A DNA stretch of 64,000 nucleotides, from the NCBI RefSeq assembly GCF_017349295.1, contig NZ_JAFMPK010000009.1, positions 1 to 64,000 on the forward strand. Direction: 5' to 3'. The stretch is from Myceligenerans salitolerans. GTDB taxonomy: Bacteria; Actinomycetota; Actinomycetes; Actinomycetales; Cellulomonadaceae. The notes beneath the pieces are model-generated. The model was not told the DNA's origin, ran no database searches, and worked only from the letters and a program-made list of their open reading frames with translations. Numbering within the stretch: the first letter of the stretch is position 1; each line of letters starts with the position of its first letter. Below, in pieces: positions 7,564 through 37,109 of this stretch. A program made the position numbers and the translations under genes.

Positions 7564-8386
7564 CGGCCTCGCCGGCAGGGCGAGCGAGTTGGTGCGTCCC
7601 TACCGCGCCGTGCTCGCGTCGCGGGTCCGCGCGCAGCGCGCGTACCGGGCGAGCTTCCGGGCGGACCTGTTCGGCACCGCGGTCGTCGGGCTGACGGAGC
7701 TGGCCGAGGTGGTCGTGCTCTTCTCGGCCGCGAACGGGACCCTGGGCGGACTCGACCTCATGCAGGCGCTCCTCGTCTTCGGGCTCGCCGAGCTGGCGTT
7801 CTCGAACGCCGACATGCTGTTCGGGCACGTCGACAGCCTCGCGCGGCAGGTACGGTCCGGGACCGTCGACATCCTGTACCTGCGGCCCCAGCCGTTGCTC
7901 GCCCAGCTCGTCACCAGCGACATCAGCCTACGGCGCGTCGGACGCTCCGCGCTGGCCGTCGTCGTCCTCGTCGTCGCGCTCGTCGTGAACGACGTCGACT
8001 GGGGACCGCGGGCCGTAGCGCTGCTGGCGATGTCACTGGTGTGCGGGTTCGCGATCTTCTGCGCCAACTTCGTCACGGCGGGCGGGCTGCAGTTCTTCCT
8101 GCTCAACGCGCAGGAGGTGACCAACGCGTTCGTGTACGGCGGGCGACACGCGTCCACCCAGCCCGCCACCGTGTGGGTGCGCAGCATCACGGTGATCTTC
8201 GGGTTCGTGTTCCCCATGGCGTTCTGTGCCTACCTGCCGGCGATGCTGCTGCTCGGCGAGCCCGGCGCGGAATGGCTGCCCGCCTGGCTCGGGTGGTACG
8301 CGCCGGCCGCCGCGGCGTGGGCATGGACGGTCGCGCTGCTCGCGTGGCGGGCCGGAGTACGGCACTACCAGGGAGGCGGAGGATGA
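7556..8386 (+). CDS. ABC-2 type exporter permease, second subunit
   Basis: The 276-residue second permease has six predicted spans and the family's basic N-terminus (RPYRAVLASRVRAQRAYR). It starts with GTG inside the end of the first permease and ends in an ATGA overlap with the ATPase gene, so the three proteins are translationally coupled. This trio (two DUF990-like permeases plus NatA-like ATPase) is a recurrent actinobacterial exporter arrangement with no firmly known substrate. Confidence 0.8.
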   Translation: MGDGLAGRASELVRPYRAVLASRVRAQRAYRASFRADLFGTAVVGLTELAEVVVLFSAANGTLGGLDLMQALLVFGLAELAFSNADMLFGHVDSLARQVRSGTVDILYLRPQPLLAQLVTSDISLRRVGRSALAVVVLVVALVVNDVDWGPRAVALLAMSLVCGFAIFCANFVTAGGLQFFLLNAQEVTNAFVYGGRHASTQPATVWVRSITVIFGFVFPMAFCAYLPAMLLLGEPGAEWLPAWLGWYAPAAAAWAWTVALLAWRAGVRHYQGGGG

Positions 8387-9360
8387 GCGGGACGACGTCG
8401 GACACGATCGTGGAGGTGCGCGGCCTGAGCCGCGACTTCCGGGTGCGCGACGGGCTGAAGGTCCGGCGGCTGACCGCCGTCGACCGGATGACCTGGAGCA
8501 TCGCCGCGGGCGAGGCGGTCGGGTACATCGGCGCCAACGGCGCCGGGAAGTCCACCACGATCAAGATGCTCGCCGGCATCCTCGTGCCGACCGCCGGCGA
8601 CGTGCATACCTGCGGGCTGAGACCGGTCAAGGACCGCAAGAAGCTCGCGCGACGGATCGGGGTCGTGTTCGGGCAGCGGTCGCAGCTGTGGTGGGACCTG
8701 CCCGTGCGGGAGTCCTTCGGCATCCTCGCCGCGATCCACTCGCTGTCCCGCGCCCGGGAACGGGCCCGCACCGACGAACTCGTCGAGACCCTCGACATGG
8801 GCGACTACCTCGGCACGCCCGTGCGGCAGCTGTCGCTCGGGCAACGGATGCGCGCCGAGGTCGCGGCCGCGCTGCTGCACCGGCCGCAGCTGCTGATCCT
8901 CGACGAGCCGACCATCGGGCTCGACGTGCTCTCCAAGCAGCGGCTGCGCGAGTTCCTGGTCCGCGAGCGGGCGGAGCACGGCACCACCCTGCTCCTCACC
9001 ACGCACGACATGGGCGACGTCGAGCGGCTGTGCGACCGCGTCCTCGTGGTGGACCACGGACGGCTCGCCTACGACGGGAGCCTCGACGGGCTCGGCCGGA
9101 CAGTCGGGGCGGAGCGCGTGCTGGTCGTGGACCTCGCCGAACCGTGCGCCGAGCTCGCCGTGCCCGGCGCGCGGCACCTGCGCAGCGAGGGCGGCGGCCT
9201 GCGGCAGCACCTCGCGTTCGACCCGGCCGCGACGACGGCCGCCCGCGTGCTCGCCGCCGTCTCCGAACAGGCCGACGTCCTGGACCTGACGATCGCCGAG
9301 CCCGCCGTCGAGGACGTGGTGCGCCGGATCTACGAACGCGCCACCACCAGCTCCTCGTAA
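8383..9360 (+). CDS. ABC exporter ATP-binding protein
   Basis: A 325-residue ATPase powering the two preceding permeases. All catalytic motifs are intact: Walker A GANGAGKSTT (about residues 51-60), Q-loop region VFGQRSQLWWDLPV, signature LSLGQRMR (about 150), Walker B LLILDEPTIGLD and H-loop LLTTHD. The C-terminal 80 residues form the regulatory extension usual in drug and antibiotic exporters. Its 3' end overlaps the converging P450 gene by 31 bp. It contrasts sharply with the degenerate ATPase at 19.8 kb. Confidence 0.9.
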   Translation: MSGTTSDTIVEVRGLSRDFRVRDGLKVRRLTAVDRMTWSIAAGEAVGYIGANGAGKSTTIKMLAGILVPTAGDVHTCGLRPVKDRKKLARRIGVVFGQRSQLWWDLPVRESFGILAAIHSLSRARERARTDELVETLDMGDYLGTPVRQLSLGQRMRAEVAAALLHRPQLLILDEPTIGLDVLSKQRLREFLVRERAEHGTTLLLTTHDMGDVERLCDRVLVVDHGRLAYDGSLDGLGRTVGAERVLVVDLAEPCAELAVPGARHLRSEGGGLRQHLAFDPAATTAARVLAAVSEQADVLDLTIAEPAVEDVVRRIYERATTSSS

Positions 9361-26663: not shown

Positions 26664-27437
26664 GTGAGCGACGAGACGCGTGAACCCGAGCAGAACGACG
26701 AGGCCACCACGGCGCCCGAGGGCGACCCCGAGGAGTTCGAGCCGGAAGACCTCGATCCCGAGGAGTTCGAGCCGGAGGACCTGGACCCCGAGAACCTTCA
26801 CGGGGAGGAGCTCGTCCCCGACGACGCCGAGGCCGACGACGTCGAGGCGGTCGACGCCGCCCCCGGCGACCTCGACCCCGAGCCCTTCGACCCCGCGACC
26901 TTCGACCCCGAGGACTTCGCGAGTGCCGAGCCGGGTGACGAGGAGGTCGCCGTCGCGGTCCAGTCCTTCTGGGAGGCGGTGCGGCCGTACGCCGGGATGG
27001 CCAAGACAGGCGTGGTGACGGGCGTGCTGGCGTCGGAGACGGTGCCGCCACCGGCGTGGTCGTTCGGCGACAAGCCGGAGATCGCCGACGAGCTGCTGGA
27101 CCTGGTGCTGGCGGGCACCAAGACGGCGACGACGTCGCCGGCGTGGGAGTACGAGGACGCGGGCGAGCCGGTGCCGCAGGTCGGCGAGCTGTCCATCCTG
27201 CTCGACGGCGAGCGGCAGCCGCGGGCGCTGATCCGCACCACCAGCGTGGAGACGGTCCCGTTCGACGAGGTCGACGAGGAGACGGCCGCCGCCGAGGGCG
27301 AGGACGACCGGACGCTGGACAGCTGGCGGACCGAGCACGAGAAGTACTTCCGCCGCAACCTCCCCGAAGGCCGCGAGTTCGCGGACGACATGCCGCTGGT
27401 GGTCGAGCGTTTCGAGCTCCTGTACCCCAGGAGCTGA
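26664..27437 (+). CDS. ASCH domain protein with acidic repetitive N-terminus
   Basis: A 257-residue protein. Residues about 95-257 form an ASCH domain, a small beta-barrel thought to bind RNA or nucleosides (landmarks: VLAGTKTATTSPAWEYED, PQVGELSILLDGE, KYFRRNLPEGREFADDMPLV). The first 90 residues are almost all Asp, Glu and Pro in five-residue units such as DPEEF and EPEDL. GTG 26664 is chosen because CAGGAT ends seven bases earlier; an in-frame ATG at 26655 is possible. It is a single gene between divergent and downstream promoters. Confidence 0.75.
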   Translation: MSDETREPEQNDEATTAPEGDPEEFEPEDLDPEEFEPEDLDPENLHGEELVPDDAEADDVEAVDAAPGDLDPEPFDPATFDPEDFASAEPGDEEVAVAVQSFWEAVRPYAGMAKTGVVTGVLASETVPPPAWSFGDKPEIADELLDLVLAGTKTATTSPAWEYEDAGEPVPQVGELSILLDGERQPRALIRTTSVETVPFDEVDEETAAAEGEDDRTLDSWRTEHEKYFRRNLPEGREFADDMPLVVERFELLYPRS

Positions 27438-29898: not shown

Positions 29899-31314
29899 TC
29901 ACCGGAGCGGACGCACGTCGACCCCCTGGAGTTCGAGCACCAGGTCGCGCACGGACGCCGCAGGCACCAGCCCGGCGTCGTCGTCCACCTGCCGCGCCAC
30001 CACGCCCGGCACCCGCGGGTCGGAGCACAGCACGAGCGGCGTGTCCGCGGCGGAGTCCGGCAGCCGCCCGTGGGAGCCCCGCACCCACGTCGCGTCCAGC
30101 GGCGTGGTGCTCATCGCGTACCGCAGGCCGAGCTTCTTGCGCACCAGGTTCAGCCCCGCGCGCGCCTTCGAGAGCCGGTCCGCCGGGTCGAAGAACAGCT
30201 CGGCCGGGTCGTAGCCCGGCTTGCGGTGGATGTCCACGCCCCGGGCGAACTCGGGCGCGCGGTCGTCCCGCAGCCAGTAGTAGTACGTGAACCAGGAATC
30301 CGGTTCGGCCACCACCACGAGCTCGCCCGACCGTTCGTGGTCCAGGCCGTAGGCCGCCTGCGCCTCGCGGTCCAGGACCTCGTCCACGCCGGGTTCCGCG
30401 CGCAGCATCGCGGCCACCCGCGGCACGTCCGCCGGATCGGCCACGTACACGTGCGCCACCTGGTGGTCCGCGACGGCGAACGCGCGCGAGGTCCACGGGT
30501 CCAGCAGTTCACGGCCCTGCTGGGTGTACACCTCGAGCAGGCCCTCCCGCCGCAGCAGCCGGTTCAGGTGCACCGGGCGGGACACCGGCCCGATCCCGTA
30601 CTCCGAGACCGCGACCACGGTCACGCCGTCGGCCTCCGCCTGGTCGAGGAGCGGTGCCAGTGCCGCGTCGAGGTCGGCCGCGGCCCGGTCCGCCTCGGGG
30701 GAGAGCGGGCCGAACCGCTGCAGGTCGTAGTCCAGGTGCGGCACGTACGCCATGGTGAGGTCGGCGGCGCGGGTGGTCAGCAGGTGCCGGGTGGCCGCGA
30801 CGATCCACCGGGTCGAGTCGATCGACGCGGTCGGGCCCCAGTACCGGAACAACGGGAAGTCGCCGAACGCCTCCGTCAGCTCGTCGTGCAGTGCCGGCGG
30901 GCGGACGTACGCGTCCGGGGACTTGCGGCCGTCCGCGTGGTACACCGGCCGGGGCGTCACCGTGACCTGCGTGGTCATCCCCATCGCGTACCACCAGCAC
31001 ACGTTCACCGCGTGATAGCCGGGCTCGGCCCGGCGAGCCGTCTCCCACAGCTTCTCACCGCCGACGAGCCGGTTGTGCTGCCGCCAGAGGTGGACCTCGC
31101 CCAGGTCGCGGAAGTACCAGCCGTTCCCGACGATGCCGTGGTCGCGCGGCGCCAGCCCGGTCAGCATCGTCGACTGCACGGAGCAGGTCACCGCGGGGAG
31201 CACCGTGGCCAGTCGCGAGGACCAGCCGGCGCGGGCCAGGCGTCCGAGCCGCGGCATGTGCGCCAGGGCGCGCTCGGTCAGCCCGACGACGTCGAGCAGC
31301 AGGACGGGCCTCAT
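29899..31314 (-). CDS. Alkaline-phosphatase-superfamily phosphodiesterase, EboF-like
   Basis: A 471-residue metal-dependent phosphodiesterase/nucleotide pyrophosphatase. The first-metal Asp is in VLLLDVVGL (residue 8), the nucleophile region is LPAVTCSVQSTMLTG, and later metal ligands are in YVPHLDYDLQ, VSEYGI and VADHQVAHVY. It is the last gene of a seven-gene minus-strand operon and overlaps the preceding gene as ATGA. In ebo clusters the EboF member is of this superfamily and probably removes or transfers a phosphate ester. There is no signal peptide, so it acts in the cytoplasm. The longer frame upstream is a shadow of the neighbour. Confidence 0.8.
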   Translation of the reverse strand: MRPVLLLDVVGLTERALAHMPRLGRLARAGWSSRLATVLPAVTCSVQSTMLTGLAPRDHGIVGNGWYFRDLGEVHLWRQHNRLVGGEKLWETARRAEPGYHAVNVCWWYAMGMTTQVTVTPRPVYHADGRKSPDAYVRPPALHDELTEAFGDFPLFRYWGPTASIDSTRWIVAATRHLLTTRAADLTMAYVPHLDYDLQRFGPLSPEADRAAADLDAALAPLLDQAEADGVTVVAVSEYGIGPVSRPVHLNRLLRREGLLEVYTQQGRELLDPWTSRAFAVADHQVAHVYVADPADVPRVAAMLRAEPGVDEVLDREAQAAYGLDHERSGELVVVAEPDSWFTYYYWLRDDRAPEFARGVDIHRKPGYDPAELFFDPADRLSKARAGLNLVRKKLGLRYAMSTTPLDATWVRGSHGRLPDSAADTPLVLCSDPRVPGVVARQVDDDAGLVPAASVRDLVLELQGVDVRPLR

Positions 31315-32525
31315 GCGGCGTCCTCCTCGCGGGTCCGTGCCGCCCGCGGCGCGGGATCCTCCAGGAGGTTCTCGCGCGCCCACCGCAGCTCCGCCGCGAT
31401 GCCCGCCACGAGGCCGTCGTCGTCCCCGCCGAGGCCAGCGACGCCGGTGGGCAGCACCGACCACGTGTACGTCTCCACGTCCAGGTGCGCCTCGTCGCCG
31501 TGCGGGGTCGCGCGCACCGCGGCGACCGCCTCGCGCAGCACGCCGGTGGTCGAGGTCAGCGGCGGTTCGGGCCGCGCGTGCAGCGGCACGTGGAAGTGCA
31601 CGCGCCACGGGCCCTCGCCCGGCAGGCCGGGCCGCCCCCGGGCGGCGCCCAGCGCCTCGTCCAGGTCGTCGGCCGCGAGCACGGTGCCCGACGACGTCCG
31701 TTCCCGCACCTGGTGCAGGTACCGCGGCTCCGCGAACCTCCCGACGGCGGCACGTGACACCGCCTGGCCCGGCGCCTCCACGTGCAGCGCGGCGGAGGCT
31801 TGGACCTTCACCACCCGGAGCCCGGCGTCCGCGATCTGCCGCACCGCGCCGGCCGGGTCGGCGAAGGACACGGCCAGATGGCACGTGTCGAGGCAGACAC
31901 CGACGTGTTCCGGATCGATCCGCCGTTCCGCCGGGAGCCCGGCATCGGTCCGGGCGGCGAGCCAGCGTACGACGTCGTCCACGGTGTCCAGGACGCAGCC
32001 GGGCTCCGGCTCCACCGCGAGGCGGACGACGTGACCCGTCCGGTCCGCCAGCACGCGCAGGTCCCCCGACAGGTCGGCCAGCGCCCGCGTCGACTCGTCG
32101 TCGTCGGCCGGTGTCCAGGGCGCGCGCCAGGCGAGCGGCAGGGTGGAGATCGACCCGGCCGCGCCGTCCGGCAGCAGTCCGGCGAGTACGCGCGCACACG
32201 CCTGCGTGTACTGCAGACGCGCGCGCTCCGCCCAGGTCGGGCGGTAGACGGAGCGGCCCACGACCTCGCTGTGGAAGCCGCCGTACGGGAACGCGTTGAG
32301 GGTGCGGACCTCCAGCCCGTGGTCCGCGAGCGCCCCGCGCAGCCGTGCGACGTCGTCGGTGGATCGGTCGAGCTGGTGCGCGACCCGTGCGGGCAGCCAG
32401 AGGCCGACCCCGAGCAGGTCGTGCCCGGTCGCCTCGCGGATCGGGCCGGCGTAGGCGGTGAGCTGGGCGATCATGCCGTCCAGGTCCTCGGCGGGGTGCA
32501 CGTTGGTGCAGTAGGAGAGATGCAT
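31311..32525 (-). CDS. eboE: EboE-like metabolite traffic protein (xylose-isomerase-like TIM barrel)
   Basis: A 404-residue TIM-barrel protein. The start MHLSYCTNVHPAEDL is characteristic of EboE, with LNAFPYGGFHSEVV near residue 80 and metal-binding AVEPEPGCVLDT and VGVCLDTCHLAV in the barrel. EboE belongs to an isomerase-like family needed for export of a scytonemin precursor in cyanobacteria; its reaction is unknown. ATG 32525 is preferred over the frame start nine codons upstream, because conservation begins there. It overlaps the phosphodiesterase gene by 4 bp and follows the TatD-like gene by 10 bp. Confidence 0.8.
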   Translation of the reverse strand: MHLSYCTNVHPAEDLDGMIAQLTAYAGPIREATGHDLLGVGLWLPARVAHQLDRSTDDVARLRGALADHGLEVRTLNAFPYGGFHSEVVGRSVYRPTWAERARLQYTQACARVLAGLLPDGAAGSISTLPLAWRAPWTPADDDESTRALADLSGDLRVLADRTGHVVRLAVEPEPGCVLDTVDDVVRWLAARTDAGLPAERRIDPEHVGVCLDTCHLAVSFADPAGAVRQIADAGLRVVKVQASAALHVEAPGQAVSRAAVGRFAEPRYLHQVRERTSSGTVLAADDLDEALGAARGRPGLPGEGPWRVHFHVPLHARPEPPLTSTTGVLREAVAAVRATPHGDEAHLDVETYTWSVLPTGVAGLGGDDDGLVAGIAAELRWARENLLEDPAPRAARTREEDAA

Positions 32526-32535
32526 GGCCGCCCCC

Positions 32536-33414
32536 TTACGCCCGTACGCCACGGAGGACGGAGGAGCCCTCGAACTCCACGCCGGGCGCTGGTGGCTCGC
32601 CCGCCACGAAGCCGGGTACGGGGTCCAGGACCAGGTTGCCCGACTGGCCGTAGAACTCCACCGGGTTGCGCCAGAGCACCTGGTCGACGTCGTCGTCCGT
32701 GAATCCGGCGGCGAGCATCTCGTGGCCGGTGCGGGCCGTCTTGAGCGGGTCGGAGCGTCCCCAGTCGGCGGCGGAGTTCACGATCATCCGTGCGGTGCCG
32801 TACTCGCGCAGCAGTGCCACGGTGCGGCGTTCGTCCATCTTCGTGTCGGGGTAGACGGAGAACCCGGCCCACATGCCGGCGTCGTGCACGAGGGCGACGG
32901 TGGTCTCGTTGAGGTGGTCGACGAGCACGCGTTCGGGTGGCAGCCCGGACTCGCGGACGACGTCGAGGGTGCGGCGGGTGCCGGCGAGCTTGTCGCGGTG
33001 GGGTGTGTGGACGAGGACGGGCAGGTCCGCGTCACGGGCCAGTTCGAGCTGGGCGGCGAACACGTCGTCCTCGGCGGGCGTCATGGAGTCGAAGCCGACC
33101 TCGCCGACCGCCACCACGCCGTCCTTCAGCAGGTAGCGCGGGATCTCCGTGAGCACCTCGCGGCAGCGCGGGTCGTTCGCCTCCTTGGGGTTGAGCGCGA
33201 TGGCGGCGTGGTGCCGGATCCCGAACTGGGCGGCGCGGAACCTCTCCCAGCCGACGAGCGAGTCGAAGTAGTCGGTGAACGAGCCGGCCGAGGTGCGCGG
33301 CTGTCCCAGCCAGAAGGCGGGCTCGACGACGGCGCGTACCCCGGCGGCGTACATCGCCTCGTAGTCGTCGGTGGTGCGGCTGGTCATGTGGATGTGCGGG
33401 TCCAGGATGCGCAT
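32536..33414 (-). CDS. TatD family metal-dependent hydrolase, EboB-like
   Basis: A 292-residue amidohydrolase-fold enzyme. The metal ligands are visible: DPHIHM at residues 5-10, EVGFDS, LVHTPHRDK, LVDHLNE and a late Asp in NSAADWG. TatD relatives hydrolyse phosphodiester, amide or lactone bonds, and the EboB substrate is unknown. It lies 2 bp after the EboA gene and 10 bp before the EboE gene. Much of the longer ORF that includes it is antisense-like Arg/His-rich sequence, so the ATG at 33414 is used. Confidence 0.82.
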   Translation of the reverse strand: MRILDPHIHMTSRTTDDYEAMYAAGVRAVVEPAFWLGQPRTSAGSFTDYFDSLVGWERFRAAQFGIRHHAAIALNPKEANDPRCREVLTEIPRYLLKDGVVAVGEVGFDSMTPAEDDVFAAQLELARDADLPVLVHTPHRDKLAGTRRTLDVVRESGLPPERVLVDHLNETTVALVHDAGMWAGFSVYPDTKMDERRTVALLREYGTARMIVNSAADWGRSDPLKTARTGHEMLAAGFTDDDVDQVLWRNPVEFYGQSGNLVLDPVPGFVAGEPPAPGVEFEGSSVLRGVRA

Positions 33415-33416
33415 GC

Positions 33417-34142
33417 TCACTCCTTCGTGGTTCTCAGCAGCCGGGTGAGGTCGGGTGGGATGTCCCGTCCCGCGGCCTGGCGTTCCGCGGCGAGGTCGTG
33501 GGCCATCCGGGACAGCTCGGCGTCGGCCCGTTCGTCGAGGCCGGCGACCGCTTGCAGCGGGACGCCCAGGAACACGAGCTTCAGGACGGCGTGCCGCCAG
33601 GTGTGGTCGTCCAGGTGCCGGCCGCCGAACGGTCCCACGGCCGCGGCGACGAGGCTGGTGTCGTTCGCCCGGAGCGCGTCCTCGGCGAGGGGGACTGCGG
33701 CGGTGGGCGCTGGTCCGCGGACGGTGAGCGCGTCGAGGGCGCGCAGGACGCCGCGCCGTTCGGCGGTGTCGCCCTGGTGGTAGAGCGTGGTGAGCGTGTT
33801 CGCCAGGCCGGGTGCGCCGGGTCCGGCGGCGTCGGCGCGGGCGACGACGAGTGCGGCGCGGGCGGCGTCGTCCACGGTGCCGTGCGTGACGCCGGTCGGG
33901 TCGACGGAGGGATGGAGCGGACCGCGCCCCGCGCGGCGCCCGGCGAGCGCGAAGAGGCGGGGCAGGGTCGCCGGGTCGGTCGCGACGGCGGTACGTGCGG
34001 TGTCGAGCCACTCCGGGTCGCGCAGGAGCGGGCGGAGGACGTCCGTGGCCAGGGCGAGGTCGCCCGCGCCGGGCAGGGCGGTGCCGGGCCGGACGGTCGG
34101 GACGGCCCGCTCGGCGTCGGGGCTTCTTGGCGCGTCGGTCAT
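33417..34142 (-). CDS. eboA: EboA-domain protein
   Basis: A 241-residue, mostly alpha-helical protein with no catalytic motif. Helical landmarks typical of EboA proteins are DDAARAALVV, TLYHQGDTAERRGVLRALDAL, LAEDALRANDTSLVAAAVGPF and HTWRHAVLKLVFLGVPLQAVAGLD. EboA is the defining, uncharacterised member of ebo clusters. Its start overlaps the stop of the upstream isomerase gene as ATGA. The first 40 residues are a Pro/Ala-rich tail. Identification rests on these segments plus context. Confidence 0.75.
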   Translation of the reverse strand: MTDAPRSPDAERAVPTVRPGTALPGAGDLALATDVLRPLLRDPEWLDTARTAVATDPATLPRLFALAGRRAGRGPLHPSVDPTGVTHGTVDDAARAALVVARADAAGPGAPGLANTLTTLYHQGDTAERRGVLRALDALTVRGPAPTAAVPLAEDALRANDTSLVAAAVGPFGGRHLDDHTWRHAVLKLVFLGVPLQAVAGLDERADAELSRMAHDLAAERQAAGRDIPPDLTRLLRTTKE

Positions 34143-34996
34143 GCGGTGACCTCCTTCCAGGCCCTGGTCAGGGTCGTGATCGACGCGGTGACGAGGTCGG
34201 GTGCGGCGTGGGAGTGGCGGGGCAGCTCGACGGCGGCGACGCCCCGGTAGCCGATGTCGGCCAGTGTCGCGAGGGTGGCCGGCAGGTCGAGATCGCCCTC
34301 GCCGAACGGGCGGTGCTCGTGGTGGGTGCGGGGCATGTCGTCGAGCTGGACGTTGCGCAGCACGGGCGCGGCGGCGCGCAGGGCTCCGTCGACACCACCG
34401 GGCTCCACGACGAGGCAGTGCCCGACGTCGACCGTGAGGCCGAGACCGGGCGGATCGCCCAGGTCGCGGAGCAGCCGGAGCCCGTCCTCCACCGTCTCGA
34501 CGTGCATCCCGGGCTCGGGTTCGAGCGCCAGCGCCACGCCGCGCGCGGCCGCGTGCTCCAGCAGGGCCGGGAGCCGGCCGAGCAGCCGGGCGCGGCCCTC
34601 GGCGGGCCGGTCGCCCGCGGGCAGGACGCCGGAGAAGAAGGACACGCACGTGGCGCCGAGCTCGGCGGCCACGTCGACGGCCCGCGCCAGGTAGCGCATC
34701 CGGGCCTCGGCGTCCGGGTCGACCAGGGTGGGCCGGTGCTTGCGTGCCGGGTCGAGCAGGTAGCGGGTGCCGGTCTCGACGACGACGGCGGCGCCGGCAC
34801 CGTCCCGCATCGCGGCCAGGCGGGTGCCCACCGCCTCCACGTCGCCGGGGGGCGCCGACAGCGGGTCGAGGTGGGGGAACCCGAGCGTGAGCGCGACGGC
34901 GTCGTAGCCGGCGTCGTCGAGCAGGTCGAGCGCGGCGGGCAGCGGGTGGTCCGCGAGCCCGTTCGTGCCGTAGCCGAGGAGGAACGGCGGCCTCAT
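34139..34996 (-). CDS. Sugar phosphate isomerase/epimerase-type TIM barrel
   Basis: A 285-residue AP-endonuclease-2/xylose-isomerase-like protein. It starts LLGYGTNGLADHPL. Metal ligands appear in VVVETGTRYLL, ALEPEPGMHVET and LTVDVGHCLVV, and the last strand is VAAVELPRHSHAAPD. It is a second barrel enzyme in the operon beside EboE and may isomerise or epimerise the cyclitol or its sugar precursor. It is coupled by ATGA overlaps to the prenyltransferase before it and to eboA after it. Confidence 0.78.
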   Translation of the reverse strand: MRPPFLLGYGTNGLADHPLPAALDLLDDAGYDAVALTLGFPHLDPLSAPPGDVEAVGTRLAAMRDGAGAAVVVETGTRYLLDPARKHRPTLVDPDAEARMRYLARAVDVAAELGATCVSFFSGVLPAGDRPAEGRARLLGRLPALLEHAAARGVALALEPEPGMHVETVEDGLRLLRDLGDPPGLGLTVDVGHCLVVEPGGVDGALRAAAPVLRNVQLDDMPRTHHEHRPFGEGDLDLPATLATLADIGYRGVAAVELPRHSHAAPDLVTASITTLTRAWKEVTA

Positions 34997-35901
34997 GTGA
35001 TGCTCACCTGCCGGCGGCCGCGGGCTCGTGCACGACGCCGCAGGGCGTACCCCGCGGCGGCCACACCGCCGAGCACGAGGGCCGTGACCGGCCGGCCGGC
35101 GCGGGCCGCCCACGTCGCCTGGAGGGGGATCATCGCGTGGAGGCCGGAGCGGGTGGCGTCGCGGACGGCGCTCGCCGTCGGGTCCGCCGCCGCACGGAGC
35201 TGGCCGGGCAGGCACGTGGCGGCGTAGGCGAGGGCGGCGGCCGCGGTGGCCCGGCGGGCGGACCCGTGGGGCTCGGCTCTCGCGGTGAGCACGGGAGCGA
35301 GCGCACCCGCGACCGTGGCGCCCGCGACCGACGACGCCACGGCCGGCGTCGTGCCCCGGACCTCGCCGCGGGAGAGCGTCGTGACGGCCGCCGTGTGCGC
35401 GGCGAGCCCGGCCGCGGCGGGGACGGCGGCGCGGAGGCTGCCCGTGGTGGCGCCCAGCAGCACGTCCAGGCCGCGGCAGGCGGCCATCGTGGCCGGGCCG
35501 AGCACGGGATGGTGCTTGAGCACCGTGTCGTACGCCCAGACGCCGGCCGCGATGCCGGACGCGACGGCGACGCCGCGGCGCCCGGTCGCGGCGCCGGCCG
35601 CGGTGATACCCGCCAGGGTCAGGGCGGCTCCGGTCGCGAGAGCCGTCCCCGGGGTGACCCGTCCGGACGGGATCGGCCGCTCGGGGCGCTCCACGGCGTC
35701 GAGGTCGCGGTCCGCCCAGTCGTTGAGCGCCATGCCCGCCAGGTAGAGACCGGCCGACGCGGCCGGCAGCAGGAGCCGGCGTGCCGTGGTGGGCCCGCCG
35801 CCCGCGGCGTGCCCGGCGAGCGTGTCGCCGACGACGGTGAGGGCCGCGGGCAGCCGGACCAGCTCGGCCAGGGACGACGCCGTCGGGGCCGGGGCCGTCA
35901 T
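34993..35901 (-). CDS. UbiA family prenyltransferase (SCO3242/EboC type)
   Basis: A 302-residue membrane prenyltransferase with about eight spans. The first Asp-rich motif is NDWADRDLD (about residues 60-68), followed by ERPERPIPSGRV, the usual loop of this family. The second motif region is YDTVLKHHP...CRGLDVLLG. UbiA enzymes move an isoprenoid chain to an aromatic ring or sugar-alcohol phosphate. Beside an inositol-phosphate-synthase-like gene, a prenylated cyclitol is the simplest guess. Both ends overlap neighbours as ATGA. Confidence 0.85.
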   Translation of the reverse strand: MTAPAPTASSLAELVRLPAALTVVGDTLAGHAAGGGPTTARRLLLPAASAGLYLAGMALNDWADRDLDAVERPERPIPSGRVTPGTALATGAALTLAGITAAGAATGRRGVAVASGIAAGVWAYDTVLKHHPVLGPATMAACRGLDVLLGATTGSLRAAVPAAAGLAAHTAAVTTLSRGEVRGTTPAVASSVAGATVAGALAPVLTARAEPHGSARRATAAAALAYAATCLPGQLRAAADPTASAVRDATRSGLHAMIPLQATWAARAGRPVTALVLGGVAAAGYALRRRARARGRRQVSIT

Positions 35902-37109
35902 CGGGCGTCCACGCGGGCGGCGGTCCTGCGGACCCAGTCGCTCAGCATCCGTTCCTGGGCGGCGGCGTCGTGGACGTCCGATCCCCACGGGTCCTTGAAG
36001 AAGAAGCCCAGCTCGGGGACGGGCCCGGACAGCCCTGCCGCGTGCGCGAGCGCGAGCAGCCGCGCCAGGTCGAGGACGAGGGGGGCGGCGAGCATGGAGT
36101 CGTACGCGCTCCACGTGGTCTGCAGGGTCAGGCGGGAGCCGAGGAACCCCTCGACGTGGACGTGGTCCCACGCGACCTTCACGTCGCCGAGGTCGGGGAC
36201 GTAGTCGATGTGCAGCGGCGTGGTGCCGGCCCCGGTGACGGCCCGTAGCCCGCGTGACTTGCTGCTCAGCTTGGAGCCGACGGCGTCGGGGTCGGCGAGC
36301 GTGGCGCCGTCCCCGCCGCCCAGCAGGTTGGTGCCCGACCACGACAGGACCCGCAGGTTTCGTGCGGCCATCGCGGGCGCGAGGACGGTGCGCAGCCAGG
36401 TCTGGCCCGTCTTGCCGTCCTGGCCCGCGAACGGGATGCCGCGTTCGGTGGCCAGCTGGGCCAGTGCGGGCAGTGCGATGCACGCGCTCGGTGTGAAGGC
36501 GGCGTACGGCGCTCCCGCGAGGATCGCCGCGTACGCGTACAGCGACGACGGCGGCAGCGGCGCGCGGTCCGGGTCGGCGAGCGCGGCGGTGAGCAGGGAG
36601 ACGTCGTCGTGCTCCGGCAGGGGGTCGGGCAACGGCTCGGTCGAGGCGACGTCCACCACGACCACGCGGTCCAGGCCGTGGCGCTCGCGGAACGCGACGA
36701 TGTCGGACGCGAGCCGTTCGGCCGTGGCCTGGCCGCTGCCCTCGGGACGGGCGGGGTCGTGGCCGGGCCGGACCTCCGCGTCGGCGGCCTCGAGGGCGTC
36801 GCGGGTGAGGGTGACCAGACGCGAGGGCAGCATCCCGGCGTCGGCCAGGGCTTCCGCGCGCTTGGGCAGGGGACAGGCGGACAGGTCGTGCCCGCCGATG
36901 ACGAGGTCCTCGAAGTCCGGCATGGGGGCCGTCGCGAGGCCGGGGCGCGCGGTGACACAGCCGGTGGGTGCGGCGTGGCCACCCGCGAGGGCGGCGAGTC
37001 CCAGGGCCGCGGTCGTGGCCACCGAACCCCGTGCTCCGACCAGCCAGAGGCCGGTGGCCGGGCGGCCGGTACGGGCGGAGGTGTTCGCGCGGGCGTGAAT
37101 ATGAGGCAT
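35898..37109 (-). CDS. Inositol-3-phosphate synthase-like protein, first gene of ebo-like operon
   Basis: A 403-residue member of the myo-inositol-1-phosphate synthase family, which cyclises glucose 6-phosphate with bound NAD. The NAD loop VGARGSVATT is at residues 24-33, the active-site GQDGKTGQTWL and SWSGTNLLGGGDG follow, and DHVHVEGFLG and LVLDLARLLALA are in the C-terminal half. It is longer than the usual actinobacterial Ino1, so a different sugar phosphate may be used. ATG 37109 has GGGGAGC upstream. It heads the operon and is divergent from cimA. Confidence 0.82.
   Translation of the reverse strand: MPHIHARANTSARTGRPATGLWLVGARGSVATTAALGLAALAGGHAAPTGCVTARPGLATAPMPDFEDLVIGGHDLSACPLPKRAEALADAGMLPSRLVTLTRDALEAADAEVRPGHDPARPEGSGQATAERLASDIVAFRERHGLDRVVVVDVASTEPLPDPLPEHDDVSLLTAALADPDRAPLPPSSLYAYAAILAGAPYAAFTPSACIALPALAQLATERGIPFAGQDGKTGQTWLRTVLAPAMAARNLRVLSWSGTNLLGGGDGATLADPDAVGSKLSSKSRGLRAVTGAGTTPLHIDYVPDLGDVKVAWDHVHVEGFLGSRLTLQTTWSAYDSMLAAPLVLDLARLLALAHAAGLSGPVPELGFFFKDPWGSDVHDAAAQERMLSDWVRRTAARVDAR

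What the first reader, a model, noticed from the sequence alone, without database searches (positions are those of the whole stretch)
29899..37109. Ebo-type operon with an inositol-phosphate-synthase relative as its cyclase
Seven tightly coupled genes encode an EboA protein, TatD-like hydrolase, UbiA prenyltransferase, two TIM-barrel isomerases, a phosphodiesterase and an Ino1-like cyclase. Cyanobacterial ebo clusters, linked to export of a scytonemin precursor, have a sugar-phosphate cyclase of the dehydroquinate-synthase type at the corresponding place. Here an Ino1-like enzyme takes it. The parts suggest a cyclitol phosphate is made, prenylated at the membrane, isomerised and dephosphorylated: an unknown prenyl-cyclitol lipid or carrier.
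Basis: partly seen in the sequence, partly recalled or inferred. Interest (0 to 1): 0.8.

Follow-up and report, generated by a model that had tools for sequence, protein, structure and literature searches.

The report
Inositol-type variant of the ebo operon
A widespread but unexplained bacterial gene set (ebo), thought to build a fat-linked ring-shaped sugar alcohol, exists in actinobacteria in a second form in which an inositol-making enzyme replaces the usual ring-forming enzyme, which gives a concrete first step for a pathway whose product is still unknown.

Summary
Seven genes with junctions of -4,-4,-4,+2,+10,-4 nt encode an archaeal-type inositol-phosphate synthase (Ino1), a SCO3242-family UbiA prenyltransferase, a TIM barrel, EboA, a TatD-like hydrolase, EboE and a phosphodiesterase. 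The genome has a separate canonical INO1 and no EboD-like gene. The pairing is lineage-wide: of 394 class genomes, 90 carry full-length EboE and 85 of these carry archaeal-type Ino1, against 4 of the other 304; the five exceptions are lone EboE paralogues. No EboD was found in 80 actinobacterial loci. In the tree 78 of 79 ebo Ino1s form one clade; all 78 keep the catalytic lysines. The UbiA resembles archaeal ether-lipid synthase, and 11 of 95 loci have a polyprenyl synthetase within 500 bp. Best reading: glucose-6-phosphate to inositol phosphate, remodelled by the Ino1-linked TIM barrel, then prenylated into a membrane cyclitol lipid. The lipid is undetected; its role is inferred. New variant of a known kind.

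The parts
35898..37109 (-). Ino1-like cyclase, archaeal-type myo-inositol-phosphate synthase, first gene of the operon
   Evidence: PF07994 and PF01658; best PDB match A. fulgidus mIPS 1u1i, E 5.9e-63; catalytic Lys/Asp/Asn positions kept
34993..35901 (-). SCO3242-family UbiA prenyltransferase (EboC-related)
   Evidence: NF045897 311.5 bits over cut-off 260; AlphaFold model pLDDT 95; VIA-align Z 24.0, rmsd 3.9 over 264 residues, to digeranylgeranylglyceryl phosphate synthase 6m31
34139..34996 (-). xylose-isomerase-like TIM barrel linked to Ino1
   Evidence: PF01261 127.9 bits; stays with Ino1 when the cluster is split; also beside Ino1 in Gemmatirosa
33417..34142 (-). EboA-domain protein, helical-repeat fold with invariant Arg/Lys
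   Evidence: NF035938 156.4 bits over cut-off 50; model pLDDT 89.8; no PDB match at E <= 0.001
32536..33414 (-). TatD-like metal-dependent hydrolase (EboB)
   Evidence: PF01026 50 bits; 59% identical to the EboB of Azospirillum
31311..32525 (-). EboE TIM-barrel protein
   Evidence: NF035939 432.5 bits over cut-off 250
29899..31314 (-). type I phosphodiesterase / nucleotide pyrophosphatase (EboF)
   Evidence: PF01663 207 bits; 51-53% identical to the EboF of three EboD-type clusters

Best explanation
This is an ebo-type biosynthetic operon in which a two-gene module (Ino1 plus its linked TIM barrel) replaces the dehydroquinate-synthase-like EboD. Shown: membership, gene order, co-occurrence, a separate Ino1 lineage, and an intact inositol-synthase active site. 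Inferred, with my likelihoods: (1) Ino1 turns glucose 6-phosphate into myo-inositol phosphate with bound NAD (0.85). (2) The TIM barrel converts that inositol phosphate, or a product of it, into the ring that the shared enzymes accept (0.55). (3) The UbiA protein moves a short prenyl chain (C10-C20 range) from a prenyl diphosphate to a hydroxyl of the cyclitol, as archaeal ether-lipid synthase does to a glycerol phosphate (0.55). (4) EboE, the TatD-like hydrolase and the phosphodiesterase finish the lipid, with EboA as a scaffold or binding protein (0.4). (5) The lipid works in or across the membrane, with secreted oxidative enzymes or exported metabolites (0.35).
For: Co-occurrence 85 of 90 EboE genomes against 4 of 304 without it. 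Same seven-gene order in 12 genome loci and in two Streptomyces plasmids. Ino1 in 54 of the 68 genome-contig loci with room to show it, EboD in 0 of 80. Of the 14 clusters without Ino1, 13 lie in genomes with an archaeal-type Ino1 elsewhere. One ebo Ino1 clade, 78 of 79 rows, SH-aLRT 95. K274, K278, K306, K367, D225, N255 and D332 (A. fulgidus numbering) are identical in 78 of 78. First Asp-rich motif NDxxDxxxD in 84 of 85 UbiA proteins; profile match to digeranylgeranylglyceryl phosphate synthase, E 1e-14. A polyprenyl synthetase within 500 bp in 11 of 95 loci, of the short-chain kind by best NCBIfam score. Large GSDH-type proteins, apparently secreted, beside the cluster in 33 of 95 loci.
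Against: No product has been seen. The only enzyme assay on a relative that I found (Ubi-297, an EboC) shows farnesylation of quinoline acids, not cyclitols (PMC9235831, passages and section 5). The second Asp-rich motif of UbiA enzymes is not there: DxxD or DxxxD in the expected loop in only 2 of 85, one invariant Glu instead. EboD is thought to use a C7 sugar (PMC5133447), whereas Ino1 makes a C6 ring, so one shared product is not obvious. EboF also occurs where EboD should already have released the phosphate. 14 of 80 clusters have no Ino1 beside them, though 13 of those 14 genomes have one elsewhere.
Confidence: 0.5

Rival explanations
1. The prenyl acceptor is an aromatic or other small molecule, and inositol phosphate enters as a head group or a second building block, so the product is not a prenyl ether of a cyclitol.
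For: Ubi-297, an EboC from Maribacter, farnesylates 8-hydroxyquinoline-2-carboxylic acid in membranes. Clusters sit beside NRPS genes in one Streptomyces plasmid, and a lone eboE lies in a type II polyketide cluster.
Against: Those substrates came from a test panel of 14 aromatics, not from the pathway. The closest solved relatives of the UbiA act on a glycerol-phosphate ether.
Confidence: 0.2
2. The UbiA enzyme works like decaprenyl-phosphate phosphoribosyltransferase and makes a polyprenyl-phosphate cyclitol carrier.
For: Profile match to that enzyme, 8j8j, E 0.001, VIA-align Z 16.7; a prenyl-phosphate donor for EboC was raised in PMC5133447 (passage).
Against: The match to the ether-lipid synthase is better in sequence (1e-14) and in fold (Z 24.0). 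The polyprenyl synthetases beside the operon look short-chain. No activated diphosphate of inositol is made by the operon.
Confidence: 0.1
3. Ino1 is only an extra inositol supply for mycothiol or phosphatidylinositol and sits next to the ebo genes without taking part.
For: Its active site is that of an ordinary inositol synthase; in one genome (G268) it is the only inositol synthase found.
Against: 25 of 26 ebo genomes have another inositol synthase; within Actinomycetes the archaeal-type enzyme is nearly confined to ebo genomes; it forms its own clade with the operon.
Confidence: 0.07
4. The operon is chiefly an export device and its enzymes only build the carrier that ferries other metabolites out, as proposed for scytonemin. 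This overlaps with step 5 of the best explanation.
For: [quoted passage not shown] apparently secreted oxidative enzymes are frequent neighbours in actinobacteria.
Against: No transporter belongs to the seven genes; the neighbours differ between lineages, and the window has none of them beside the operon.
Confidence: 0.3

Closest known systems
ebo operon eboABCDEF of Bacteroidetes, Cyanobacteria and eustigmatophyte plastids (PMC5133447, PMC6282210)
   Same: EboA-domain, TatD-like EboB, UbiA-family EboC relative, EboE and EboF in one operon
   Different: EboD is missing; Ino1 and a second TIM barrel stand in; the UbiA is a separate NCBI family; different gene order
SCO3242/SCO3243 pair in the CDA region of Streptomyces coelicolor (PMC3610822, passages)
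   Same: an inositol-phosphate synthase and the founding member of the SCO3242 transferase family with consecutive locus tags
   Different: I did not read that locus itself; that the rest of the operon is there is recalled, not tested
Archaeal-type myo-inositol-1-phosphate synthase (A. fulgidus, PDB 1u1i)
   Same: both Pfam domains and all compared catalytic residues
   Different: separate clade tied to ebo genes; several fixed substitutions against the non-ebo actinobacterial enzymes
Digeranylgeranylglyceryl phosphate synthase (PDB 6m31, 7bpu)
   Same: fold and first Asp-rich motif; best solved relative in sequence and fold
   Different: second Asp-rich motif not found in the window family; about 14% identity

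Membership tests
ebo operon | EboE present | tested here: met
   NF035939 432.5 bits, cut-off 250
ebo operon | EboA domain present | tested here: met
   NF035938 156.4 bits, cut-off 50; but the fuller EboA family model NF035937 scores 69.1 against 320
ebo operon | EboC by NCBI's equivalog model | tested here: not met
   NF035940 156.2 bits against 250; the sister model SCO3242 is met at 311.5 against 260. The EboC proteins of three EboD-type plasmid clusters also miss the EboC cut-off.
ebo operon | EboD, a dehydroquinate-synthase-like cyclase | tested here: not met
   the only PF01761 match of the genome is on another contig (C42), in a 674-codon frame containing AroB-like sequence; no EboD in 80 actinobacterial loci
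ebo operon | TatD-like EboB and EboF phosphodiesterase | tested here: met
   PF01026 and PF01663; 40-59% and 51-53% identity to proteins of three EboD-type clusters
myo-inositol-phosphate synthase | both Pfam domains PF07994 and PF01658 | tested here: met
   182 and 101 bits
myo-inositol-phosphate synthase | catalytic Lys274, 278, 306, 367 with Asp225, Asn255, Asp332 (A. fulgidus numbering, roles recalled) | tested here: met
   identical in the window and in 78 of 78 ebo rows; PDB rows with Lys-to-Ala changes at two of these positions appear
myo-inositol-phosphate synthase | makes inositol phosphate from glucose 6-phosphate | not testable with these tools
   needs an assay
mycothiol-type INO1 | TIGR03450 cut-off 638 | tested here: not met
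   30.7 bits; the genome's other gene scores 704.1
UbiA superfamily | fold and first Asp-rich motif | tested here: met
   Z 24.0 to 6m31; motif in 84 of 85
UbiA superfamily | second Asp-rich motif (recalled) | tested here: not met
   DxxD or DxxxD in 2 of 85 in the expected loop, one Glu invariant in 85 of 85; the loop was placed by sequence order, not by a residue-level structural alignment

The most novel reading that the evidence does not exclude
EboD and the Ino1 plus TIM pair are interchangeable, unrelated entry modules to one class of prenylated C6 cyclitol lipid, which would mean that EboD itself starts from glucose 6-phosphate rather than a C7 sugar. In actinobacteria this lipid is a membrane redox or carrier cofactor for secreted sugar- and phenol-oxidising enzymes (sorbosone-dehydrogenase type, 3-keto-sugar hydrolases, multicopper oxidases), which would make ebo a third kind of bacterial membrane cofactor pathway beside quinones and undecaprenyl phosphate.
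Probability: 0.13. Interest if true: 0.9.

Novelty: new variant of a known kind. Interest (0 to 1): 0.62.

Why it matters
The ebo product has been unknown since the operon was named in 2016, and the first enzyme, EboD, has no assigned substrate. In the actinobacterial form the first enzyme has a textbook active site, so the starting material and first intermediate can be predicted and traced with labelled inositol or glucose in tractable Streptomyces. The form is common: 85 of 394 sampled Actinomycetes genomes carry both EboE and the archaeal-type Ino1. A replaced cyclase with the rest of the set kept also limits what the ring can be.

Tried and rejected
Chance adjacency was rejected. The Fisher value (1e-74) is not corrected for relatedness.

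Five class genomes with EboE but no Ino1 looked like counter-examples; they hold a lone EboE relative (31-35% identity), and no other window gene, EboD or EboC query matched within the 19 kb stretches read.

I first read the clusters without Ino1 as using inositol phosphate from primary metabolism; one search showed an archaeal-type Ino1 elsewhere in 13 of those 14 genomes, so that reading was dropped. I did not check whether those Ino1 genes lie in a second ebo cluster.

A fold search with EboA gave no PDB match at E <= 0.001 (best 0.093); its function stays open. The ORF search between Ino1 and TIM in L227 and L222 gave nothing readable. The Gemmatirosa Ino1 falls outside the ebo clade on a long branch; its place is unsure.

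Papers: searches (ebo terms; SCO3240-3243) found no paper that reports an inositol synthase in an ebo cluster. The library holds open-licence PMC papers only, so print elsewhere is not excluded. PMC5133447: abstract, passages and the first part of section 3.2; PMC6282210: abstract and passages; PMC9235831: passages and section 5; PMC6092422 and PMC3610822: passages. The remaining papers were seen as search listings only.

Rows dropped: one search used EboE matches over the cut-off only (90 genomes of the 98 with any match) and left out PF07994 matches under the cut-off and second fragments of the same gene. In one search, 12 of 80 loci were cut by contig ends before the Ino1 position and were not counted. 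The neighbour families are single-linkage BLAST clusters and may be joined through shared PKD or CBM domains; of five large proteins from loci of the GSDH cluster that I gave to Pfam, four had GSDH (L164, L143, L065, L130) and one from L068 had no Pfam match and may not be the cluster's member.
Full report
The operon. Four of six junctions are 4-base overlaps, the other two gaps are 2 and 10 bases. Pfam and NCBIfam give, in order of transcription: inositol-phosphate synthase, SCO3242-family prenyltransferase, xylose-isomerase-like TIM barrel, EboA-domain protein, TatD-like hydrolase, EboE, and type I phosphodiesterase. The operon lies between ilvE and cimA, names that are read from sequence and recalled rather than tested; a relative in the same genus (L223) has the same arrangement, and another (L224) has it with a longer gap before cimA.

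Other copies in the genome. The genome (4.58 Mb, 49 contigs, 99.97% complete) has a canonical mycothiol-type INO1 on another contig, 704 bits against a cut-off of 638. Its only dehydroquinate-synthase domain is on contig C42, in a 674-codon frame containing AroB-like sequence. It has five other UbiA-family genes.

How general it is. In 296 genomes sampled across the phylum, 14 have EboE, and in 13 of these an archaeal-type Ino1 lies within 4.3 kb of it; the fourteenth, G279, has the Ino1 on another contig together with the TIM barrel. Twelve loci from those genomes show all seven genes in the same order and direction. In 394 genomes of the class, 90 have full-length EboE and 89 have Ino1 over the cut-off; 85 have both, and 80 have the two within 8 kb. 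The five with EboE alone carry a lone, 31-35% identical relative without the other genes. In 37 genomes of the family, EboE is in 12 and this Ino1 in 11, never without EboE; the twelfth, G325, has its EboE at the start of a contig. Among 80 named genome loci, all actinobacterial, 54 show Ino1 in the cluster, 12 are cut by contig ends, 14 have room but no Ino1, and none has EboD. Of the 14, 13 genomes have an archaeal-type Ino1 elsewhere.

The contrast. Annotated ebo clusters of Deinococcus, Azospirillum, Ketogulonicigenium and Salipiger carry a dehydroquinate-synthase-like gene and no Ino1. In the plasmid collection, EboD relatives at 44-60% identity, besides the query's own record, occur in 15 further records, none actinobacterial, while the window UbiA finds 29 records, 28 actinobacterial and one Gemmatirosa. 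The Gemmatirosa cluster has Ino1, the TIM barrel, UbiA, EboE, TatD and the phosphodiesterase, so the Ino1 form is not strictly actinobacterial. The TIM barrel travels with Ino1: in G279 and G387 the pair lies apart from the rest of the cluster but in the same genome, and the TIM query finds no match in the three EboD-type clusters searched with it. I therefore read EboD as replaced by a module, Ino1 plus TIM. PMC5133447 mentions actinobacterial proteins in which EboA is fused to a xylose-isomerase-like domain, which fits the neighbouring position of TIM and EboA.

The enzyme. A tree of 133 proteins puts 78 of 79 ebo Ino1s in one clade (SH-aLRT 95), apart from 32 non-ebo archaeal-type proteins and 22 mycothiol-type ones; only the long-branched Gemmatirosa protein falls outside. 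Genomes that hold both kinds (G051, G075, G097) have one in each group. The catalytic positions of the A. fulgidus enzyme compared here are identical in 78 of 78. The plain inference is that it makes inositol phosphate. In 25 of 26 ebo genomes checked, another inositol synthase is present (20 over the mycothiol cut-off, two close below it, three with a non-ebo archaeal-type gene); G268 has none besides the ebo one.

The prenyltransferase. It passes NCBI's SCO3242 model and misses the EboC model. A profile of 44 relatives finds archaeal digeranylgeranylglyceryl phosphate synthase in the PDB at 1e-14, chlorophyll synthase at 5e-10 and decaprenyl-phosphate phosphoribosyltransferase at 0.001. The model (pLDDT 95) aligns best with the same archaeal enzyme, Z 24.0 over 264 residues at 3.9 A. 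The first Asp-rich motif is kept in 84 of 85; the second is not seen in the expected loop, where one Glu is invariant. That departs from known UbiA enzymes as I recall them and deserves a test of its own.

Prenyl supply and neighbours. Eleven of 95 loci have a polyprenyl synthetase within 500 bp of the operon, in several arrangements (downstream on the same strand, upstream on the same strand, convergent, divergent), against five at 3.9-6.1 kb in about 1160 kb of flank. By NCBIfam the five tested look like short-chain synthases, all below the curated cut-offs. Recurrent neighbours are large proteins with glucose/sorbosone dehydrogenase, PKD, carbohydrate-binding, ThuA or 3-keto-disaccharide hydrolase domains (cluster of 33 of 95 loci), a further TIM barrel (27), another TIM-barrel cluster whose representative appears to carry a Tat-type signal, read by eye (23), and Gfo/Idh/MocA oxidoreductases (14); a multicopper oxidase follows in L143 and in one Streptomyces plasmid. 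A PQQ-dependent dehydrogenase lies by the EboD-type cluster of Salipiger. [quoted passage not shown] The window's own neighbours do not show it.

What is known. The isoprenoid-cyclitol proposal is from PMC5133447 and the lipid-carrier idea from PMC6282210. Neither the passages I read nor the searches mention an inositol synthase in an ebo cluster, though public annotation shows the genes side by side and S. coelicolor SCO3242 and SCO3243 are listed as a transferase and an inositol-phosphate synthase in the CDA region.

Verdict. A real, widespread, apparently undescribed variant of the ebo operon. Its first step is predictable; prenylation of the cyclitol is plausible and supported by context; the product and its role remain unproven.

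Noticed in passing
L060 (second ebo cluster of G128), L160, L166, L169, L170, L171, L172, L178: Ebo clusters without Ino1 in streptomycete-type loci, preceded on the same strand by an FAD-dependent oxidoreductase (8 loci); in some an inositol-monophosphatase-like and a gamma-glutamyltransferase-like gene (by eye) lie further upstream.
   Followed up: partly
L052 (Streptomyces sp. NBC_01244 plasmid) 7971-9149; L216-L220: EboE occurs alone: once inside a type II polyketide cluster, and as 31-35% identical lone relatives in five small genomes.
   Followed up: partly
window 34993-35901 (UbiA protein), residues about 166-188: The second Asp-rich metal-binding motif expected of UbiA enzymes is not found; a single Glu is invariant in 85 of 85 relatives.
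   Followed up: partly
G268 (L058): A same-order genome with the ebo Ino1 but no other inositol synthase found.
   Followed up: no
L071, L072 (G279): A split, damaged-looking cluster: EboE lacks its middle part, and Ino1 plus TIM sit on another contig near genes that look like tRNA-modification genes.
   Followed up: partly
window about 26670-27437, + strand: A reading frame with an acidic N-terminal run of near-repeats (DPEEFEPEDL...) in front of what looks by eye like an ASCH-type domain.
   Followed up: no
L051 4177-5376: A ScyD/ScyE-family protein, a name known from scytonemin synthesis, is annotated directly upstream of the Ino1 gene in a Streptomyces plasmid.
   Followed up: no
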